DNA of 64,000 nucleotides. It comes from Bacteroidota bacterium. GTDB taxonomy: Bacteria > Bacteroidota > Bacteroidia > UKL13-3. The DNA lies in contig JAIXSO010000032.1 of assembly GCA_027484685.1 (NCBI GenBank), positions 1-64,000 on the forward strand, read 5' to 3'. The position numbers and the translations under genes are program-made. The notes beneath the pieces were generated by a model. It made no database searches. It saw nothing but the letters and a program-made list of their open reading frames with translations, and had not been told where the DNA came from. Positions 1-34,961 of this stretch are shown piece by piece; the stretch's first letter is position 1, and each line of letters starts with the position of its first letter.

Positions 1-297
1 TATTTAAAAACAAATAATGACAATGAGTTGAAAAAGTATGAAGTAAATGATTCTGACAGAACATATCAATTTTGGGAGAGAAACCCATTGAGTATTGAAA
101 TTTATTCAAGAGAAGTAGCAGAACAAAAATTAAGGTATATTCATAATAACCCTTATCAAGAAAAATGGAACTTTATGATTGCAGGCGAGGACGCCTGCAA
201 TGGCGGAATCTATAAACATTCATCAGAGGAATTTTATAATACCAACCATAACGAAATGAATATGCTTACTCATTATTTAGATTATTTTGAAAAATAG
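1..297 (+). CDS. REP-associated tyrosine transposase (RAYT, IS200-like Y1 family), C-terminal part, cut by window edge
   Basis: The reading frame is open to base 1, so this is the 3' end of a longer gene. The segment YQFWERNPLSIEIYSREVA followed by a conserved YIHNNP block is typical of the C-terminal region of Bacteroidota RAYTs, single-strand HUH transposases related to IS200/IS605. The HUH motif and catalytic tyrosine lie outside the window. Family knowledge says RAYTs act on REP palindromes, and three such palindromes lie within the next 800 bases. One REP copy (175-207) is read in frame inside this gene and supplies residues MIAGEDACNGG, between the NNPYQEKW block and the YKHSSEEFY block that usually follow each other closely. 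Whether the protein still works is unknown. Confidence 0.8.
   Translation, partial: YLKTNNDNELKKYEVNDSDRTYQFWERNPLSIEIYSREVAEQKLRYIHNNPYQEKWNFMIAGEDACNGGIYKHSSEEFYNTNHNEMNMLTHYLDYFEK
175..207 (+). repeat. REP palindrome, copy 1 (inside the RAYT gene)
   Basis: The 33-bp unit contains a perfect 10-bp inverted repeat, ATTGCAGGCG (178-187) and CGCCTGCAAT (192-201), around the loop AGGA. It recurs at 301-333 and 800-832. It is 11 codons long, so it keeps the transposase frame open. Confidence 0.9.
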
Positions 298-300
298 ATT

Positions 301-333
301 ATGATTGCAGGCGAGGACGCTTGCAATGGCGGA
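301..333 (+). repeat. REP palindrome, copy 2
   Basis: This is the same 33-bp unit as at 175-207, with one C-to-T change at 321 that weakens the second arm. It starts three bases after the RAYT stop codon. The similarity to the copy at 800 extends upstream over ATTTTGAAAAATA, which here encodes the end of the RAYT protein. Confidence 0.9.
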
Positions 334-343
334 AAGAGATATC

Positions 344-724
344 ATGAAACAAGACATTTTTGTATTAATTATATTCATAACTGTATTGATTACAAATCAA
401 TGCAGCTCAAGAAAAACCAATCAATTTGATTCTCGAGAATATTGGAAAAAAGAGTTAAATGAAATTTTGGCTGACACCTCAAACCAATTTTATGCTGACA
501 CTCTTATTACTAATGAAAAAACTGCATTGGCAATTGCAGAACCAATCCTTGCAGCCAAATATGGACAAACGCAAATAGACAGAGAAAAGCCTCTAGTTTC
601 CATAAAAGTAAACAATTATTGGATTATAAATGGAACATTACCTAATGGTTACGTAGGAGGAACCGCAACTGTCATATTGAGGGCAACAGACGGCAAAGTC
701 ATAAAGTTGATTCATTACAAATAA
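344..724 (+). CDS. NTF2-fold immunity protein (YbbC/YhhH-like), putative lipoprotein
   Basis: The second half contains TALAIAEPILAAKYG, an EKP motif and then WIINGTLPNGYVGGTATV and DGKVIKLIH, the signature order of the NTF2-fold immunity family (Imm-NTF2-2, PF15631; YbbC/YhhH group). Members protect against polymorphic or contact-dependent toxins. The ATG at 344 was chosen because the longer frame from 305 begins inside the REP palindrome. From this start the protein opens with a hydrophobic segment ending in TNQC-SS, a plausible lipobox, so it may sit in the periplasm. No toxin gene is adjacent, so it looks like an orphan immunity gene. The family call is strong; the protective role is inferred. 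Confidence 0.75.
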   Translation: MKQDIFVLIIFITVLITNQCSSRKTNQFDSREYWKKELNEILADTSNQFYADTLITNEKTALAIAEPILAAKYGQTQIDREKPLVSIKVNNYWIINGTLPNGYVGGTATVILRATDGKVIKLIHYK

Positions 725-744
725 AGGATAGCTTATTCTTAGCC

Positions 745-778
745 CTTGTTGGTGTATTAGCGAAGCGTCACCAACAAG
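745..778 (+). repeat. Intergenic hairpin, possible terminator
   Basis: CTTGTTGGTG (745-754) and CACCAACAAG (769-778) form a perfect 10-bp stem with a 14-nt loop, 21 bases after the stop of the immunity gene. No T-run follows, so it may be a dispersed palindromic repeat instead of a terminator. Confidence 0.6.
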
Positions 779-799
779 AAATATTTTGAAAAATAACTT

Positions 800-832
800 A
801 TGATTGCAGGCGAGGACGCCTGCAATGGCCGA
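800..832 (+). repeat. REP palindrome, copy 3
   Basis: The 10-bp arms (803-812 and 817-826) and AGGA loop are perfect. The only change in the 33-bp unit is C for G at 830. It is preceded by ATTTTGAAAAATA, as at copy 2, so the copied unit is longer than the palindrome. Confidence 0.9.
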
Positions 833-844
833 GAAAATACATTT

Positions 845-1252
845 ATGAAAAATCTAAAATTATTTATAGTGGGATTATTCTGCTTGATGTCACTTGTATT
901 GATAGTATATCAATTTGATTTCACTAAACGTAAAATTGCTTCTTATAGCCATAAAATTGAAATCCCTAATTACCTTTTTAAAGTTCATATTATGGAAATC
1001 CGATTTTTTAATAGGTTTTCAAATGCAAAAACAACTGGAATTATTTCATCTGAAAAAATTTTAGATTTTTACAATGATATTCATGGAGAACAAGTAATTA
1101 TAAACTCAAATCCTTTTGGCGGCATTGTGTCTTGGTCTAAAATTAAGAGCGATAGTTTTTCTATTATTTACAGAGACTCTGAAGGTAATTTAAATTCAAA
1201 AGTAACTAATGGGTTATTTTATAATGTCGAAATAAATAGTCATAATGAATAA
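845..1252 (+). CDS. Hypothetical single-pass membrane protein
   Basis: I do not recognise this 135-residue protein. It begins MKNLKLFIVGLFCLMSLVLI, one membrane anchor or an uncleaved signal, followed by a soluble domain of about 110 residues. The ATG at 845 is preferred over an in-frame ATG at 800 because the region between lies in the REP palindrome. Its position beside an immunity gene and REP copies suggests accessory DNA; a role as another immunity protein would be a guess. AT-rich like its neighbours, with no odd codon pattern visible by eye. Confidence 0.55.
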   Translation: MKNLKLFIVGLFCLMSLVLIVYQFDFTKRKIASYSHKIEIPNYLFKVHIMEIRFFNRFSNAKTTGIISSEKILDFYNDIHGEQVIINSNPFGGIVSWSKIKSDSFSIIYRDSEGNLNSKVTNGLFYNVEINSHNE

Positions 1253-7533: not shown

Positions 7534-7615
7534 TGGCATTTATAAACTAAAGTAGCATTTTGTTTATTATTACAAGAACTCAAAAGCAAAATTTAGCGCA
7601 TGGACCAATATCGTT

Positions 7616-7761
7616 AAGTTAAGGAATTTATGACCTTGAAAAGGTCAAATATTTATAGCAGTCATAAATTGATTGGTGGGTGCGACCCCGATGGGGTCGT
7701 ATGTTTTATGGCAAATATTTTCTATAAACATGTGACTCCTTTGGAGTCATTTCCTTAACTT
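7616..7761 (+). repeat. Cloverleaf-like palindromic element (three hairpins closed by an 11-bp stem)
   Basis: Perfect outer arms AAGTTAAGGAA (7616-7626) and TTCCTTAACTT (7751-7761) enclose three 7-bp hairpins with 3-nt loops: TGACCTT/AAGGTCA (7631-7647), CGACCCC/GGGGTCG (7683-7699) and TGACTCC/GGAGTCA (7733-7749). The three hairpins share the frame GACNYY-nnn-RRNGTC but differ in paired bases, as if structure and not sequence is kept. It lies in the 417-base gap after the ABC gene and carries no open frame of note. It may be a MITE-like element or a structured RNA. Confidence 0.75.
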
Positions 7762-7778
7762 GATTATATTGAGCATCT

Positions 7779-7926
7779 GTCCGAAAGCTTTCGTAATTTG
7801 ATGGGTGTTATTTTTAGTATGTTTTCTATTTTCTATTTTTAAATTAATATAGTTTTTGTGGCTCTTGTTGGTTTTTATACGTTAAAGCCATTCAGCAGCG
7901 ATATTGGTTCGCTTTTCCTATAGCTA
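7779..7926 (+). repeat. Dispersed repeat family R1, copy 1
   Basis: Shares the ordered blocks GTCCGAAAG, GGTGTTATTTTTAGTATG, TTTTCT and TTGTTGGTTTTT, then GCCATT and CTTTTCCTATAGCTAG, with the copy at 8602-8740; the first part recurs at 9294-9383. It sits between the cloverleaf element and the 3' end of a membrane protein gene. Confidence 0.65.
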
Positions 7927-7950
7927 GACTAAATATTTTACACTTTTATT

Positions 7951-8508
7951 TTAATTAGCTATAGTTGAATTGTTTTTGTTTATAATATACCTAATATTTT
8001 TCTTTCTTAACATTTTCAAAATCAGTCGAATTTTTTTTGTTGATGTAATTGCTCTTTGTACCAGCAATTCTTGAGATTTATCTATATTAGTTATTACAAG
8101 TGCAATTTTCCATTTAGTGTAAGGGAGTCCAGATGTTTCAGTTAAATCTATAGTTTGTTTTATTTGAAAATAAATTTCAGAATAAGGAATTACAATGTTC
8201 CCATTTTTTTTTACCTCATTTTTAGAGAAATCAATTACCAAGGATTTAAACAATAAAATCCATTTAATTTCAGTTACGAGATACCAAAATAAATAAAGAG
8301 AAACGAAAACAAAAAGTAAAATAACAAAAAGAGAAATATTATAATGAAGAACAAGAATTACTCCAAAAATCAAAAAAAATAATGTACTTAATGCTAAAAG
8401 TATTATGTTTAAATAAACAAGAAGATTTCTTCTTATAATTTCTATTTTATTATCATAAAACAAAAACGTTATTTCATCAGTTTTGAGTATTTCGAGATTA
8501 ATTTGCAA
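7951..8508 (-). CDS. Hypothetical membrane protein with two central helices and a C-terminal PH-like region
   Basis: I do not recognise this 185-residue protein. Residues 1-28 are soluble, about 30-90 form two strongly hydrophobic helices (LNIILLALSTLFFLIFGVIL and the following segment), and the rest is soluble with a strand-rich region (LVIDFSKNEVKKNGNIVIPY) resembling small bacterial PH-like membrane proteins. The two paralogues at 10079 and 10948 show a broadly similar soluble/membrane plan but no clear sequence match to it. It is the last of five minus-strand genes in the accessory island, bounded by R1 copies on both sides. An immunity or accessory role is inferred only from context. Confidence 0.5.
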   Translation of the reverse strand: MQINLEILKTDEITFLFYDNKIEIIRRNLLVYLNIILLALSTLFFLIFGVILVLHYNISLFVILLFVFVSLYLFWYLVTEIKWILLFKSLVIDFSKNEVKKNGNIVIPYSEIYFQIKQTIDLTETSGLPYTKWKIALVITNIDKSQELLVQRAITSTKKIRLILKMLRKKNIRYIINKNNSTIAN

Positions 8509-8601
8509 CTGTCACCCCCCTATTTTTTAGCAGCTTCTTTAACAGCCGAATTTAAATTCATTGAAATCCCTGCTAGCACCCCCAATGCAAAGGCTAGCGC
8601 C

Positions 8602-8740
8602 CGTCCGAAAACTTTCAGACCTATGCTATTTTTAGTATGTTTTCTAATCATAAACAAATATTATTTTTGCTCTTATTGGTTTGTCAATGCCATAGGAATT
8701 AATCAGCTTTATAGGTTTCCTTTTGTGCTAGTTTGGTATG
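8602..8740 (+). repeat. Dispersed repeat family R1, copy 2
   Basis: Contains GTCCGAAAACTTTCAGAC, an imperfect inverted repeat, then TTTTTAGTATGTTTTCTAAT and ATTATTTTTGCTCTTATTGG, and ends with GTTTCCTTTTGTGCTAG. That last 17-mer recurs exactly at 10918-10934. It fills the gap between two minus-strand genes. Confidence 0.7.
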
Positions 8741-8744
8741 GTTG

Positions 8745-9359
8745 TTAATTTTCGAATAGACTATAATTTGAGAAAAAATAAGTTTTTAAATACGAATATT
8801 TAGTACTGTTTCTTGAAAATAAAGGGAAAATAATTTTTGCAGAATTCAATAAAGTTAGAATTTGGTAAATCTCTTTTTCAAATTCTTTTTCATTAGACCC
8901 AACATAGAAACCATAATTAGAAATTAGCCCGTTTGTGTCAACTTCTAATACTATTTTTATGGCTTCAACAGGTGAACCAAATGAAAGACGCATTTTAGCT
9001 TTTTCATAATTATAATTTCTCTTTATGAACACTAACAACATTTCATTAATAATACTATCTTGATTTGTTCCTATGAATGGATTTATATACACATCTTCTT
9101 TTTTAGTTTGATAAAAGGATAAATTATTATTGCTTTTAATTAGCTGATAGCTAATGCTTGTTTGTGTGCTATCAAAAAATATAAACTCAATTTTTTTATC
9201 ACTAAGGTTTATCATTTTGATTGACGTATTCTGTGAATAAACAAAACCACTAAAGTAGAAAAAAATTATTGTGATTAACTTTTTCCCAACTAGTGTCCGT
9301 CCGAAAGTTTTTGGACTTTGGGGTGTGTTATTTTCACTATGTTTTCTAATCATAAACAA
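8745..9359 (-). CDS. Hypothetical secreted protein with a repeat-derived N-terminus
   Basis: The frame runs 204 residues. Residues 25-43 (GKKLITIIFFYFSGFVYSQ) are a normal Sec signal peptide, but the only in-frame ATG lies 24 codons upstream, inside repeat R1 copy 3. The first 24 residues are therefore encoded by the repeat. Either translation starts at a non-standard codon near 9287, or insertion of the repeat removed the native start and the gene is now impaired. The mature region is of unknown family; a stretch around LEVDTNGLISNYGFYVGSNE is faintly like the C-terminal fold of TonB-type proteins, which I regard as weak. Confidence 0.45.
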   Translation of the reverse strand: MFMIRKHSENNTPQSPKTFGRTLVGKKLITIIFFYFSGFVYSQNTSIKMINLSDKKIEFIFFDSTQTSISYQLIKSNNNLSFYQTKKEDVYINPFIGTNQDSIINEMLLVFIKRNYNYEKAKMRLSFGSPVEAIKIVLEVDTNGLISNYGFYVGSNEKEFEKEIYQILTLLNSAKIIFPLFSRNSTKYSYLKTYFFSNYSLFEN

Positions 9360-9383
9360 ATATTATTTTTGCTATTACTTGGT
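9294..9383 (+). repeat. Dispersed repeat family R1, copy 3
   Basis: Begins with GTCCGTCCGAAAGTTTTTGG and matches copy 2 closely over GTTTTCTAATCATAAACAAA and TATTATTTTTGCT. It lacks the right end. It overlaps the 5' end of the minus-strand secreted-protein gene and ends 6 bases before the stop of the CdiI-like gene. Confidence 0.7.
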
Positions 9384-9388
9384 TATTA

Positions 9389-9808
9389 TCAAAGAATCTG
9401 CAGAGAAAGAAATTCTTCTGTTGCCTTAATTAACTTTGATTTGTTTTCATTTGTTAAGGTAATGATTTCCATTTTTTGTTTAATTCTAGAAACTAATCTC
9501 TCTACAGAGTTTCTTTCAACTGGGTTATTCAACCAATATTGAATATCACTTTTTAAAACAACAAAAAGTAAATCACCCGGATAATAATCACCTGATACAA
9601 ATAAATCCTTATCTAAAATTTCAATTGCTCTTGGAATTAAATACTTTAAACATTGATTCTGTCCAATCATAATTCTTAAATCCTCAACAGTAAACTGACA
9701 AATTAATTTCTTTCGCAAGGTATAAACACGCCAAACTAAATATGAAACATCTTCCTTAGATGGAATATCAAAGTATTTAGCTTCTATTTCTTCAATTGTT
9801 AAATTCAT
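9389..9808 (-). CDS. Contact-dependent growth inhibition immunity protein (CdiI family)
   Basis: The 139-residue protein matches the CdiI_2-type immunity family (PF18593): an N-terminal IEEIEAKYFDIPS helix, then LRKKLICQFTVEDLRIMIGQ, LKYLIPRAIEIL and GDYYPGDLL in the expected order. These cytosolic proteins neutralise the toxic C-terminal domain of a CDI or other polymorphic toxin. No toxin is adjacent. The ATG at 9808 is chosen because the longer frame (to 9862) begins inside repeat R2 and adds residues not typical of the family. It lies between R1 and R2 repeat copies in the accessory island. Confidence 0.8.
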   Translation of the reverse strand: MNLTIEEIEAKYFDIPSKEDVSYLVWRVYTLRKKLICQFTVEDLRIMIGQNQCLKYLIPRAIEILDKDLFVSGDYYPGDLLFVVLKSDIQYWLNNPVERNSVERLVSRIKQKMEIITLTNENKSKLIKATEEFLSLQIL

Positions 9809-9836
9809 TTCATTGATTATTTTATAAATTACCAAC

Positions 9837-9997
9837 TGGTTAGGATTTATAATCCGAATCAACTATTAGAAGGATTCGCAATCCGCTTTTTTCCATATTT
9901 ACCTTAAAACAAATATATTAATTGGTATCATTTTTTTGCTTCATAAATGCTAGTTTGACAAATTACACTGGCAGGGTAAAGCGGTTTGAGAGTTACA
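9837..9997 (+). repeat. Dispersed repeat family R2, copy A
   Basis: Starts ACCAACTGGTT, holds two small hairpins GGATT-tat-AATCC (9842-9854) and GGATT-cgc-AATCC (9873-9885), then TGGTATCATTTTTTTGCTTC and AAATGCTAGT, and GCGGTTTG. The same order of blocks recurs at 10806-10897. It fills most of the 270-base gap between two minus-strand genes. Confidence 0.6.
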
Positions 9998-10078
9998 AAC
10001 TCTATTTTATTTTAAATTCGTTATTTGCAACGCTATTGCCTAGCAAAGAATCTACAAACATTGCAAACAAATACAACT

Positions 10079-10780
10079 CTAATTGATTAGAAAATTATTT
10101 AAAATTAAAACAAATAATAGCATTATTATACTTACAAGTATAATAAAACAAAGAAATCCTTGCAAATACTTTACCTTATAACCCTGAATAAGAATTATCT
10201 CTTGAAATCTATTAGAGAAAAATAACATAAAAGATACGCATGTTAAAGTTGTGAATGCAATTATTGCCCCCAAGCTTAACGGAGATACAGAAAGAACAGA
10301 TAATGAATACTTTGAATACTTTAGAACATTAGGGTTTGATCTTATTTTTAGAATAAAATTAACTAAATCATAGGAAATTGATAAAATCCATATGCAAGAA
10401 ATAATAATTGCAAAAATTCTCTTAATAGGTAAACGTCCAGTTCCTTGCCTTGAAATTATTTTTTTAGAAATACAATTAGTATCGTAAAATCCAGAATCCT
10501 TAATTTTTAAGATTATAGACTCAAAATTTTCAGATGTCCAAAAAATAATTGATTCATTATAATCATTCAAATTATGTTTAATTCTTATTCCTTTTGAAAA
10601 TGAACCATGATAAGGTTCTATAGAAATAATATCTTCTTTTGTAAAAATGAAATAACCAAAAATTGAAGCGTTAAGAGTTAATATATTATCCTCAATTCCT
10701 AAAGAAGCAAAAGGCCAAGTTACATTTGAAATACCAATTCTTGCACCCCCAGTTATCAAAAATTCTTTATTATTATTCAT
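10079..10780 (-). CDS. Hypothetical membrane protein, paralogue of the gene at 10948
   Basis: The 233-residue protein has a soluble N-terminal domain of about 115 residues and three or four C-terminal membrane helices. The segment LNASIFGYFIFTKEDIIS is nearly identical to LNASIFGYFIFDKEDIIS in the neighbour at 10948-11541, and similarity continues over SFSKGIRIKH. The pattern of short strands followed by a basic KGIRI resembles small bacterial PH-like or BPtransfer domains, but I cannot name the family. This copy keeps a full N-terminus with ATG and appears intact. Repeat R2 copies lie on both sides, which suggests duplication by recombination or cassette movement. Confidence 0.6.
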   Translation of the reverse strand: MNNNKEFLITGGARIGISNVTWPFASLGIEDNILTLNASIFGYFIFTKEDIISIEPYHGSFSKGIRIKHNLNDYNESIIFWTSENFESIILKIKDSGFYDTNCISKKIISRQGTGRLPIKRIFAIIISCIWILSISYDLVNFILKIRSNPNVLKYSKYSLSVLSVSPLSLGAIIAFTTLTCVSFMLFFSNRFQEIILIQGYKVKYLQGFLCFIILVSIIMLLFVLILNNFLIN

Positions 10781-10805
10781 TCTATATTACTTTTATTTAG
10801 TTGTT

Positions 10806-10943
10806 AACCAACTGGTTCGAACTTTCAATCCGCTAATTTATTAACTAGTATCATTTTTTGCATTACAAATGCTAATAATATTAAGTGCGGTTTGCAAAAG
10901 AGCACTGACTGGTACAAGTTTCCTTTTGTGCTAGCAAGGAAAC
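10806..10943 (+). repeat. Dispersed repeat family R2, copy B, ending in an R1-type terminus
   Basis: Shares ACCAACTGGTT, AATCCGC, TAGTATCATTTTTTGCAT, AAATGCTA and GCGGTTTG with copy A. Its right end, GTTTCCTTTTGTGCTAG, is the R1 copy 2 terminus, here followed by CAAGGAAAC, which creates an 8-bp hairpin GTTTCCTT/AAGGAAAC (10918-10943). Confidence 0.6.
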
Positions 10944-10947
10944 AATA

Positions 10948-11541
10948 TTAATTAAAGAAACCATCACTCGACAACCCTAAAAACATCAATATAAACATGA
11001 AGTAAATAAATGGCTTTAAATATTCAAAATTATAATTTTTAATTAGGATAAAAGATCTGACTTGTTTAGAAACAAAAAGTAATGAGAACAAAACAATAAT
11101 AAATATGGTTGATATTTGCGGCACACCTATTTTATAATTCAATATTTTATATCGATATAATTCTTCAAAATTTACAAAAATAACATCATTTATAAATGAA
11201 TAAACTGTCATAAGAATTATCAAAATAATAACAGGCTTTTTAATTACTACCCGACCGCTATATTTTTTAATTTCAGTATCAACTTTTTCAGTATCTTCAT
11301 TATTCTCCATTATTTTTTCAATCTCACTTATAATGATATTTGTGCCCGTCAATGGAAAAAAATAAATGTCGTCATAATACGACTCCACTTTATGATTAAT
11401 TTTAATGCCTTTAATGAAACTATCCTCGTATAACTCCAATGAAATTATATCTTCTTTATCAAAAATAAAATATCCAAATATTGAAGCGTTAAGGATTAAT
11501 CTATTATCTATTATTTCAATTGTTGAACAAAGGTAAGGCAC
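10948..11541 (-). CDS. Hypothetical membrane protein, paralogue of the gene at 10079, probably 5'-truncated or frameshifted
   Basis: This paralogue shares the LNASIFGYFIF-KEDIIS block and the soluble-then-membrane plan. The first usable codon in frame is GTG at 11541. Upstream in the same frame the residues AASVGVWR still align with ARIGISNV of the intact copy, but a TGA stop follows at once. An ATG at 11564 lies one base out of frame and would read into the homologous region after a single-base shift. So the natural start seems lost to a frameshift or deletion. The protein may be made from GTG, or the gene may be a recent pseudogene. Confidence 0.5.
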   Translation of the reverse strand: MPYLCSTIEIIDNRLILNASIFGYFIFDKEDIISLELYEDSFIKGIKINHKVESYYDDIYFFPLTGTNIIISEIEKIMENNEDTEKVDTEIKKYSGRVVIKKPVIILIILMTVYSFINDVIFVNFEELYRYKILNYKIGVPQISTIFIIVLFSLLFVSKQVRSFILIKNYNFEYLKPFIYFMFILMFLGLSSDGFFN

Positions 11542-31639: not shown

Positions 31640-33310
31640 ATGAAAAATTTAATTAAAACAATATTTGTACTTTTATTATTGGTGTTTGCCAATTGCATAC
31701 ATGCCCAAAATGCTTGTGAGTTTGATTCGAGTTATAGTAAAGAAGCTCAAGGGCATCGAATACTAGAAACAGAAAGTGGCAATTACCTTCTTGTTACACT
31801 CTCAGGTTTTGATGCTAATTATAGATTTGCTGATAAACTTCTTTTGCAATTAGCACTTATAGACAAATGTGGAAATCAAATTTGGAGAAAAAATATAGAT
31901 TCTATTGGATCTGGTAATGGTAATGTTATTGGTTTTTACAGGGAGAGTATCAATGTCTTGCTCCTTGCTGTAAATAATCTTTTTGAAGGCACAACTTTGT
32001 TTTTTAAAATAGATAGTATTGGTAATGTTATTCACAAATGGAAAAACAACTATGTTTCCGAAAATTTCCAAACAAAAAACATTTTAAAAATTAATTCAAA
32101 CAAGTACTTAACAATTGGTTATCTTGTTCAAAATAGTGGCAATATTACCCATGCTAATTCGCAAATTGTAATGACTGACACGTTTGGCAGTACTTTATTA
32201 ATAAAAAAAATTTATGTAGATTCTAACTCTAAAGGACAAATATTTAACGGTTATAAGCTTTCAAACAACAATATTTTGTTATTAGGGTCGGAAGATAGCT
32301 CCCTAATGATTACTTATATTGATACTTCCTTAACTATAAAAAATATTATTAAAGTTTCTGGCTCAAAAAATATTGAACGATTCAATGAATATATTGTACT
32401 GAGAAAAAATAATACTCAAATACTTTATTCGGCTCCAGTTTCTTCTCAAGGTGTTTATATGGCTAAATTAGATTTGTTAGGGAATTTACTACAAGAAAAA
32501 ACGTTCCCTAGCACTAAATACGGGAAATCAATCATTGGCACTGAAAATATATATTATTTATCAAGATACCAACCTCATGCGTTACTTTCAATTGATAGTG
32601 GTCTTAATATAAATAAAATTGATACATTACGTTACCCTCAACCACCATCAATATACGATGGAAGAGCTATTTTAGATTATATAATTACAAATGATAGTTC
32701 TTTAGTTTTTATTGGTTCTATAGAATATACAAGGAGTACTAGTTATAGAACTACGGTTAATGTATTCAAACAAAGTTTGTTTAATAAAATTAAAACGATT
32801 ACCATTATTGGTGCAAATTTTATTGATCAAAAAAATGGCTTATTACAACTTACCGCTGCCATATTACCAACAAACGCAGCCAATCAACAAGTAATATGGA
32901 GCATTAGCGATACCAACTTAGCTACTATTAACCAAACAGGCTTGGTAACGGCCAAGGCTAATGGAACAGTAGTAGTTACAGCTACCGCAGCAGATGGAGG
33001 TGGCGCAACAGCTACCAAAACCATAACTATAACCAACCAAACTGTAGGCATAAATGAAGTAAACTTAAATAACCAAATTACAGTTTACCCTAATCCTGCA
33101 AGTAACAAATTAATAATAACAACAACCAATAATTTAACTCCTGATGCATCAAGACTGCAATTACAACTACTTGATTTAACAGGTAAAGTTATAGCTAATT
33201 ATAATAACCAAACCGAAATTGATATATCAGCCATAGCTAATGGTATGTATTTGCTGCATATACAAACACCAAATAGAAATGTGGTAAAACAAGTGGTAGT
33301 TAACAAATAA
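31640..33310 (+). CDS. Secreted protein with Ig-like (Big_2) domain and T9SS type A sorting domain, paralogue 1
   Basis: The 556-residue protein has a signal peptide (1-22), a central region of about 370 residues with repeated strand motifs that suggest a beta-propeller, a bacterial Ig-like group 2 domain (around 395-460, with VIWSISDTNLATINQTGLVT and ANGTVVVTATA), and a C-terminal type A sorting domain (ITVYPNPASNKLII, LLDLTGKVI, IANGMYLLHI). It is exported by Sec, then moved across the outer membrane by the T9SS. Signal and C-terminal regions are nearly identical to those of the next gene while the centres differ. Adhesion is a guess. Confidence 0.85.
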   Translation: MKNLIKTIFVLLLLVFANCIHAQNACEFDSSYSKEAQGHRILETESGNYLLVTLSGFDANYRFADKLLLQLALIDKCGNQIWRKNIDSIGSGNGNVIGFYRESINVLLLAVNNLFEGTTLFFKIDSIGNVIHKWKNNYVSENFQTKNILKINSNKYLTIGYLVQNSGNITHANSQIVMTDTFGSTLLIKKIYVDSNSKGQIFNGYKLSNNNILLLGSEDSSLMITYIDTSLTIKNIIKVSGSKNIERFNEYIVLRKNNTQILYSAPVSSQGVYMAKLDLLGNLLQEKTFPSTKYGKSIIGTENIYYLSRYQPHALLSIDSGLNINKIDTLRYPQPPSIYDGRAILDYIITNDSSLVFIGSIEYTRSTSYRTTVNVFKQSLFNKIKTITIIGANFIDQKNGLLQLTAAILPTNAANQQVIWSISDTNLATINQTGLVTAKANGTVVVTATAADGGGATATKTITITNQTVGINEVNLNNQITVYPNPASNKLIITTTNNLTPDASRLQLQLLDLTGKVIANYNNQTEIDISAIANGMYLLHIQTPNRNVVKQVVVNK

Positions 33311-33314
33311 AACC

Positions 33315-34961
33315 ATGAAAAATTTAATTAAATCAATATTTGTACTTTTATTATTGGTGTTTGCCAATTGCATGCATGCCCAAAATGCTTGTGAGTTTGA
33401 TACGCGTTTCTCTTTTGGATTTAAAGCAAGTGAAAAGAGCTCTAATTTAATAGAAACAAAAAGTAATATGTTTTTATTAACTGGTACAAGTGGATATAAA
33501 ACTAATATGTATGATTCAAGACCTGACACCCCTTTTTTTGTAATAAAAAAAATTGATGCTTGTAACAATCAGTTATGGAGCAAAAATCCTTTGGGATTTC
33601 AAAAATCTAATCCATTAGATATATTAGAAGACAACAATGGTGATATTTTAAATGTAATTTCGATAGAAGGAATTAGAAATCTTGTAAAATTAGATAGTAA
33701 TGGTAATTTAAAATGGAAAGTAGAAGTAAAAAACAGTCCTAATTATTTTGCGGCTAAACTTATAAAATTGAATGCTAATAAATATTTATTAGCAGATAGA
33801 GGATTTAAAGGAGGGTCAGTATTAATATTTGATACACTAGGCAATACTATAGCCAAAAGATACATTGATAGTTTAAATTCATTGAGTACAATATACAATG
33901 TTTATTACACTCCAAACAAAAACATAATTTTAACAGGATTGAAAGACTCCTCTATTGCTTTAATAACCACTATAGATACTCTTACTAATACTTTAACTTC
34001 TATAGAGATACCTTTATTAATTAAGGAAAATATTTTTACAATCGATTTAAACAATGAACATTCAGAAATACTGGTTAATGGTTCTGTTACACTTGATAAT
34101 AATCCTTATTTAGCAAGCTACGATATGCAAGGAAAATTAATACGAGACACTACTTTAATGTCGGATTTGTTTAAAAATTCTGGCTGTATAAATTTCACTA
34201 AAAACGAAAATATCTTTTTTATCAGTAATTCTTGGATATTAACAGATTCTAGCTATCAAATCAAAAAAATTGAAAAATCAAAATTAACACTAAACGGATA
34301 TTCTTCACCATTAGGGCTTTCTTCAATAATTAAAAGTTCAAATAACTTTTTTATTGGAATAGGCTACTATTCGGAAGGTTCTGTTTCCGTAAAGACCAAT
34401 ATTCCATATATAAAAAGCATAGTTTCAAATAAAATAATTACATCCATTTACATTATTTCTGGTAGTAATACTATTAACACCCAAGGTGGTTTATTACAAC
34501 TTACTGCTGCCATATTACCAGGTAATGCAACCAACAGACAAGTAATTTGGAGCATTAGCGATACCAACTTGGCTACCATAACCCAAATAGGTTTGGTAAC
34601 AGCTAAGGCCAATGGAACTGTAATAGTTACTGCCACCGCAGCAGATGGAGGTGGTGCAACAGCTACCAAAACCATCACTATTACCAACCAAACCGTAGGC
34701 ATAAATGAAGTAAACTTAAATAACCAAATTACAGTTTACCCTAACCCGGCAAGTAATAAACTAATAATAAAAACAACCAATAATTTAACTCCCGATGCAT
34801 CGGGACTACAATTACAACTACTTGATTTAACAGGTAAAGTAATTGCTAATTATAATAACCAAACCGAAATAGATATATCAGCCATAGCCAATGGTATGTA
34901 TTTGCTGCATATACAAACACCAAACGGAAACTTGGTAAAACAAGTGGTAGTTAATAGGTAA
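33315..34961 (+). CDS. Secreted protein with Ig-like (Big_2) domain and T9SS type A sorting domain, paralogue 2
   Basis: This 548-residue paralogue starts 4 bases after the stop of the first. The nine bases before each ATG (AATAAAACC) and the first 85 bases of each gene agree except for about three positions. The last 480 bases, encoding Big_2 and the sorting domain, are also about 90 percent identical. The central region from about residue 30 to 380 has diverged beyond easy alignment. This shape fits tandem duplication followed by diversification of the exposed domain, with gene conversion or constraint at the ends. Both should be T9SS substrates, probably from one mRNA. Confidence 0.85.
   Translation: MKNLIKSIFVLLLLVFANCMHAQNACEFDTRFSFGFKASEKSSNLIETKSNMFLLTGTSGYKTNMYDSRPDTPFFVIKKIDACNNQLWSKNPLGFQKSNPLDILEDNNGDILNVISIEGIRNLVKLDSNGNLKWKVEVKNSPNYFAAKLIKLNANKYLLADRGFKGGSVLIFDTLGNTIAKRYIDSLNSLSTIYNVYYTPNKNIILTGLKDSSIALITTIDTLTNTLTSIEIPLLIKENIFTIDLNNEHSEILVNGSVTLDNNPYLASYDMQGKLIRDTTLMSDLFKNSGCINFTKNENIFFISNSWILTDSSYQIKKIEKSKLTLNGYSSPLGLSSIIKSSNNFFIGIGYYSEGSVSVKTNIPYIKSIVSNKIITSIYIISGSNTINTQGGLLQLTAAILPGNATNRQVIWSISDTNLATITQIGLVTAKANGTVIVTATAADGGGATATKTITITNQTVGINEVNLNNQITVYPNPASNKLIIKTTNNLTPDASGLQLQLLDLTGKVIANYNNQTEIDISAIANGMYLLHIQTPNGNLVKQVVVNR

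What the first reader, a model, noticed from the sequence alone, without database searches (positions are those of the whole stretch)
7616..11541. Repeat-separated island of small same-strand genes with immunity proteins
Five small minus-strand genes (7951, 8745, 9389, 10079, 10948) are each divided by a copy of repeat family R1 or R2. One is a clear CdiI-type immunity protein, two are membrane paralogues, and none has an adjacent toxin. Tandem genes plus interspersed homologous repeats look like a cassette array that gains and loses units, in the manner of polyimmunity loci. The layout is seen directly; the array interpretation is inference.
Basis: partly seen in the sequence, partly recalled or inferred. 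Interest (0 to 1): 0.62.

Follow-up and report, generated by a model that had tools for sequence, protein, structure and literature searches.

The report
Orphan immunity island with REP-type repeats
This is a small AT-rich cluster of genes that probably protect a Bacteroidota bacterium from neighbours' toxins; most of the repeats between them are ordinary miniature mobile elements scattered through the genome, not special cassette-exchange sites, so the locus is interesting but of a known kind.

Summary
The layout is real: five small minus-strand genes (7951-11541), each separated by an R1 or R2 copy, between a convergent ABC transporter and a DUF2279 gene. The reading "heterogeneous polyimmunity locus" holds up. 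Gene C is CdiI_3 (Pfam E 2e-26). A relative of E overlaps the end of an RHS-repeat gene. A relative of A/B lies in a cluster with a T6SS TssD and Imm22/Imm51/OmdA proteins. No toxin is adjacent in the window. Gene A is broken by an in-frame TGA and D has no detected relative. The "cassette array" reading is not supported. R2 is a miniature derivative of a REP-associated tyrosine transposase (RAYT) element: in three congeners its halves flank a 181-aa RAYT, and elsewhere it lies between housekeeping genes. R1 is local: a thrice-copied leader plus gene start with a REP-like hairpin. The five families do not travel together, and no gene-plus-repeat unit was found elsewhere. R2 is moderately over-represented in small-gene islands (5/12 sites vs 7/61 control gaps, p=0.02), which tolerance of insertions would also give. 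Ordinary in kind. A truer cassette-like array, with Rhs-tip/small-gene pairs and two tyrosine recombinases, lies on another contig (C61).

The parts
10948..11541 (-). gene A, paralogue of B, 5' end broken by an in-frame TGA (likely pseudogene)
   Evidence: tblastn of B through one TGA; 34% aa identity to B
10806..10915 (-). R2b, miniature RAYT-derived element, internally shortened
   Evidence: alignment of 19 R2 copies
10079..10780 (-). gene B, PH-like beta domain plus C-terminal membrane helices, probable orphan immunity protein
   Evidence: model pLDDT 74 with weak PH-like hits; relative in a TssD/Imm22/Imm51 cluster
9985..10066 (-). R3, REP-type repeat with copies on at least seven other contigs; also beside the RAYT on C71
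9829..9972 (-). R2a, miniature RAYT-derived element ending about 20 bp upstream of the ATG of C
9389..9808 (-). gene C, CdiI_3 immunity protein (start corrected to ATG at 9808)
   Evidence: Pfam PF18616 E=2.2e-26
9290..9384 (-). R1a, leader repeat that supplies the start of ORF D
   Evidence: 80% identity to R1b
8745..9353 (-). gene D, secreted-looking protein, no detected relative
   Evidence: no match in 394 other genomes; no Pfam hit
8590..8720 (-). R1b, leader repeat with CCGAAAACTTTCAG hairpin
8520..8651 (-). 43-codon ORF starting in R1b, 11 nt ahead of E (coding status uncertain)
   Evidence: no relative in 63 other genomes of the family
7951..8508 (-). gene E, two membrane helices plus beta domain, probable orphan immunity protein (TTG start)
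   Evidence: relative overlaps the end of an RHS-repeat ORF; model pLDDT 83
7776..7900 (-). R1c, decayed leader repeat, no ATG, cut by the 165-bp element
7606..7772 (-). 165-bp dispersed element with 21-nt terminal inverted repeats and internal hairpins (MITE-like)
   Evidence: at least 6 copies at 85-94% in own genome

Best explanation
The locus is a horizontally acquired, partly decaying heterogeneous polyimmunity island. Each gene would make a small, often membrane-bound protein that neutralises a toxin domain delivered by competing bacteria (CDI, Rhs or T6SS type), so the cell is protected without making the toxin. The repeats are not part of that mechanism. R2, R3 and the 165-bp element are miniature REP/RAYT-type mobile elements that landed in intergenic gaps which tolerate insertions. 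R1 is a locally duplicated leader/gene start. Recombination between them may delete or duplicate genes occasionally, but nothing shows a dedicated cassette system. Shown: gene layout, CdiI_3 identity, toxin-linked relatives of E and of A/B, R2's derivation from a RAYT element, dispersal of the repeats. Inferred: immunity function of A/B, D and E, acquisition by transfer, passive accumulation of repeats.
For: C is CdiI_3. The E relative's ATG overlaps the end of a 1191-aa RHS-repeat ORF, and the B relative lies in a run of small genes with TssD, Imm22, Imm51 and OmdA. The island is 26.8% GC against 33-36% for its neighbours, and the genes are absent at DNA level from nine congeners. R2 1-124 and 126-195 flank a 181-aa RAYT in three congeners, and own contig C62 has a frameshifted version. 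R2 lies between housekeeping genes in many places. The 165-bp element has at least 6 copies.
Against: D has no relative at all. The immunity role of A/B and E rests on one toxin-linked relative each; the other relatives found (L123, L124) are not next to toxins. R2 is enriched in small-gene islands, which leaves some room for a role in moving genes.
Confidence: 0.75

Rival explanations
1. Cassette array: gene-plus-repeat units are gained and lost by homologous recombination between R1 or R2 copies, in the manner of rAID arrays or integrons.
For: Every gene is bounded by a repeat in the same orientation. R2 is over-represented in small-gene islands: 10/18 sites with both flanking ORFs under 250 aa vs 7/61 control gaps, or 5/12 vs 7/61 after collapsing sites per island, p=0.02. 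A/B are paralogues with an R2 between them.
Against: R2 is a RAYT derivative found between housekeeping genes in congeners. The two island R2 copies are diverged and shortened in different ways. No recombinase in the window: the six Phage_integrase hits are on other contigs. No R1- or R2-bounded unit was found elsewhere.
Confidence: 0.12
2. R1 is a functional shared leader (promoter, start and N-terminal tag) that has been placed in front of several immunity-type genes, so that R1a-D and R1b-small ORF-E are expressed alike.
For: The ATG and frame stay open in R1a and R1b, with a 6-nt (in-frame) length difference. R1 occurs nowhere else in the genome.
Against: The third copy has no ATG. No relative of the 43-aa ORF in 63 genomes, and no exact match to the 24-nt core in the genome-contig collection (the window's own genome may be left out there). 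The conserved core includes a hairpin close to CCGAAAGCTTTCGG, which recurs elsewhere in sampled parts of this genome, so a REP-like origin is also possible.
Confidence: 0.2
3. The small genes are ordinary accessory genes or anti-phage genes unrelated to toxin immunity.
For: A, B, D and E have no significant Pfam or NCBIfam family.
Against: CdiI_3 in the middle of the run, RHS- and TssD-linked relatives, and no PADLOC hit.
Confidence: 0.12

Closest known systems
Heterogeneous polyimmunity loci (Zhang et al. 2012, PMC3482391)
   Same: Clustered, structurally unrelated small immunity-type genes without toxins; known in Bacteroidetes
   Different: Only one of the five belongs to a named immunity family; one is broken; mobile elements or leader repeats lie in every gap
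rAID, recombinase-associated acquired interbacterial defence (PMC12247911)
   Same: Array of co-oriented short AT-rich orphan immunity-type genes with repeated intergenic sequence
   Different: No tyrosine recombinase in the window; the repeats are REP/RAYT-type or local, not one motif at each gene. rAID is described from Bacteroidales; the order of this organism was not identified here
REP elements and RAYT elements (PMC3733652, PMC2817692, PMC3116915)
   Same: R2 is made of short hairpins, is extragenic and dispersed, and its ends flank a RAYT gene
   Different: R2 is long (about 160 nt, several hairpins) and looks like a RAYT element with the gene deleted, closer to a MITE than to a classical 20-40 bp REP

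Membership tests
heterogeneous polyimmunity locus | several structurally unrelated immunity genes clustered | tested here: met
   C = CdiI_3; E and A/B families have one toxin- or T6SS-linked relative each; D unassigned, so met in part by inference
heterogeneous polyimmunity locus | no cognate toxin adjacent | tested here: met
   flanks are an ABC transporter and a DUF2279 gene
heterogeneous polyimmunity locus | proteins neutralise toxins | not testable with these tools
   needs co-expression
rAID | co-oriented short genes (about 100-300 codons) | tested here: met
   139-233 codons, all minus strand
rAID | array genes under 41% GC | tested here: met
   22.6-27.4% GC, but the window itself is 30.8%, so not discriminating
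rAID | predicted tyrosine recombinase upstream of the array | tested here: not met
   no PF00589 hit in the window; six on other contigs. The array's upstream side lies inside a 374-kb contig
rAID | conserved intergenic sequence motifs | tested here: inconclusive
   repeats are present but of four different kinds, three of them dispersed in the genome
RAYT/REP-derived miniature element (for R2) | ends shared with an element that encodes a RAYT | tested here: met
   L062, L064, L065; decayed copy on C62
RAYT/REP-derived miniature element (for R2) | hairpin-forming | tested here: met
   consensus folds at z -2.4 (2 of 200 shuffles as good); the island copies are decayed and do not stand out, z 0.65 and -1.3
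RAYT/REP-derived miniature element (for R2) | extragenic, dispersed | tested here: met
   27 matches on 16 contigs of the own genome; contexts

The most novel reading that the evidence does not exclude
REP/RAYT-derived repeats act as recombination seams that gather, duplicate and shed orphan immunity genes in this Bacteroidota lineage, a transposon-debris route to polyimmunity without a dedicated recombinase.
Probability: 0.12. Interest if true: 0.55.

Novelty: new member of a known kind. Interest (0 to 1): 0.3.

Why it matters
It adds an orphan-immunity island from what looks like an environmental Bacteroidota lineage and points to two unannotated protein families (E and A/B) as likely immunity proteins. 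It also warns that repeats between immunity genes need not be cassette sites: here R2, R3 and the 165-bp element are mobile debris. If the enrichment of R2 in small-gene islands holds genome-wide, REP elements would be a testable route for turnover of immunity genes.

Tried and rejected
Looked for the empty site: DUF2279 orthologues in congeners are not next to the ABC transporter, so no clean empty-site comparison was possible. R1 as a widespread element: rejected. R2 as a portable promoter: rejected as a general role, since by my hand count from the maps its 3' end faces a co-oriented gene at 13 of 18 own-genome sites but only 4 of 17 sites in relatives (binomial p 0.10 and 0.05). Fold search for E gave nothing usable; for B only weak PH-domain-like hits, none below E 0.001. 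Plasmid search with B: no match. A scan of 85,000 species' genomes for relatives of E returned only two loci, the same ones already found.

Full report
Observation. Two starts need correction: C begins at an ATG at 9808, downstream of R2a, and A is broken, because its similarity to paralogue B continues upstream through a TGA. R1 is well beyond chance (84 bits against at most 34 in 200 resampled sequences). Two more repeats were missed, a 165-bp dispersed element at 7606-7772 and R3 at 9985-10066.

Genes. C is CdiI_3 (PF18616, E 2.2e-26). E has relatives in 2 of the 63 other genomes held for its order. In one of them (L125) the relative's ATG overlaps the end of a 1191-aa ORF with an RHS-repeat match, the classical toxin-immunity arrangement. 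B has two clear relatives in 394 other genomes of the phylum sample and one weak partial one. One clear relative lies in a run of small genes with TssD, Imm22, Imm51 and OmdA proteins. B models as a PH-like beta domain with C-terminal membrane helices (pLDDT 74; weak PH hits, none below E 0.001). D has no detected relative. Different genomes hold different members: C in G009 and G061, E in G009 (another contig) and G077, B in G391 and G182. The five do not travel as a block. The island is 26.8% GC, the neighbouring genes 33-36%, and none of the genes is found at DNA level in nine congeners, which fits horizontal acquisition.

R2. Aligning copies gives a consensus of about 160 nt with several short hairpins. 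In L062, L064 and L065 its 5' and 3' halves flank a 181-aa ORF of RAYT type, about 45% identical to ORFs of the window's genome that match Pfam Y1_Tnp. The join in R2 falls between the transposase start and its stop, so R2 is that element with the gene deleted. Contig C62 of the same genome carries a frameshifted copy with the gene. R2 copies in relatives mostly lie between housekeeping genes. In the own genome 27 matches were found on 16 contigs: several in core gaps (C16, C12, C55, C71), several in small-gene islands (C10, C36 with a SUKH protein, C34, C39, C61).

Enrichment. With 18 scorable copies, 10 had both neighbours under 250 aa against 7 of 61 control gaps (p 0.0003). Copies within an island are not independent; collapsing by hand gives 5/12 against 7/61 (p 0.02). 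Controls were eight arbitrary 20-kb stretches, not the whole genome, and gaps were not matched for length. I read this as suggestive, and as equally expected if islands simply tolerate insertions.

R1. Three copies, only here. R1b contains the start of a 43-codon ORF ending 11 nt before E; R1a supplies the start of ORF D; R1c has no ATG and is cut by the 165-bp element. The frame stays open in R1a and R1b and the indel is a multiple of three, which favours a duplicated gene start. But all three copies also hold a near-copy of a hairpin, CCGAAAGCTTTCGG, that recurs in sampled parts of this genome, and neither of the two folded copies folds better than shuffled sequence. Coding or REP origin is left open.

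Judgement. A heterogeneous polyimmunity island, in part inferred, decorated with REP/RAYT-type debris. The rAID resemblance fails on the recombinase. The statement that R1/R2 make cassettes lacks any positive case. The better candidate for a cassette-like array in this genome is contig C61, listed under things noticed.

Noticed in passing
G000 contig C61 (L106 1-5000, L167 1-8818): Array of six ORFs that share an Rhs-like start of about 40 aa but differ afterwards, most followed by a small ORF, plus two tyrosine recombinases (PF00589). Units are separated by a repeated terminator-like hairpin AAACCGCTTTAGCCAAAAACTAAAGCGGTTT, which also occurs on C39, C10 and C60. A truer cassette-like array than the window island.
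   Followed up: partly
window 1-1252: Second small immunity-type island: the C-terminal end of a RAYT-like ORF, then an Imm-NTF2-2 gene (326-724, Pfam E 1.3e-21) and a 150-aa ORF, with copies of a TTGCAGGCGAGGACGCCTGCAA REP hairpin between them.
   Followed up: partly
L172 7660-9530 (G000 contig C36): Four R2 copies interspersed with small genes in a run that also holds a SUKH immunity protein.
   Followed up: partly
window 8715-8731 and 10918-10934: A 17-nt sequence CTAGCACAAAAGGAAAC (minus strand) follows both gene A and gene D; not seen elsewhere in the sampled genome at up to 2 mismatches. Unexplained.
   Followed up: partly
window 31640-34961: Two tandem paralogous secreted genes (556 and 548 aa) with near-identical C-terminal sorting-type domains, with an R2 copy just before the first and just after the second.
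   Followed up: no
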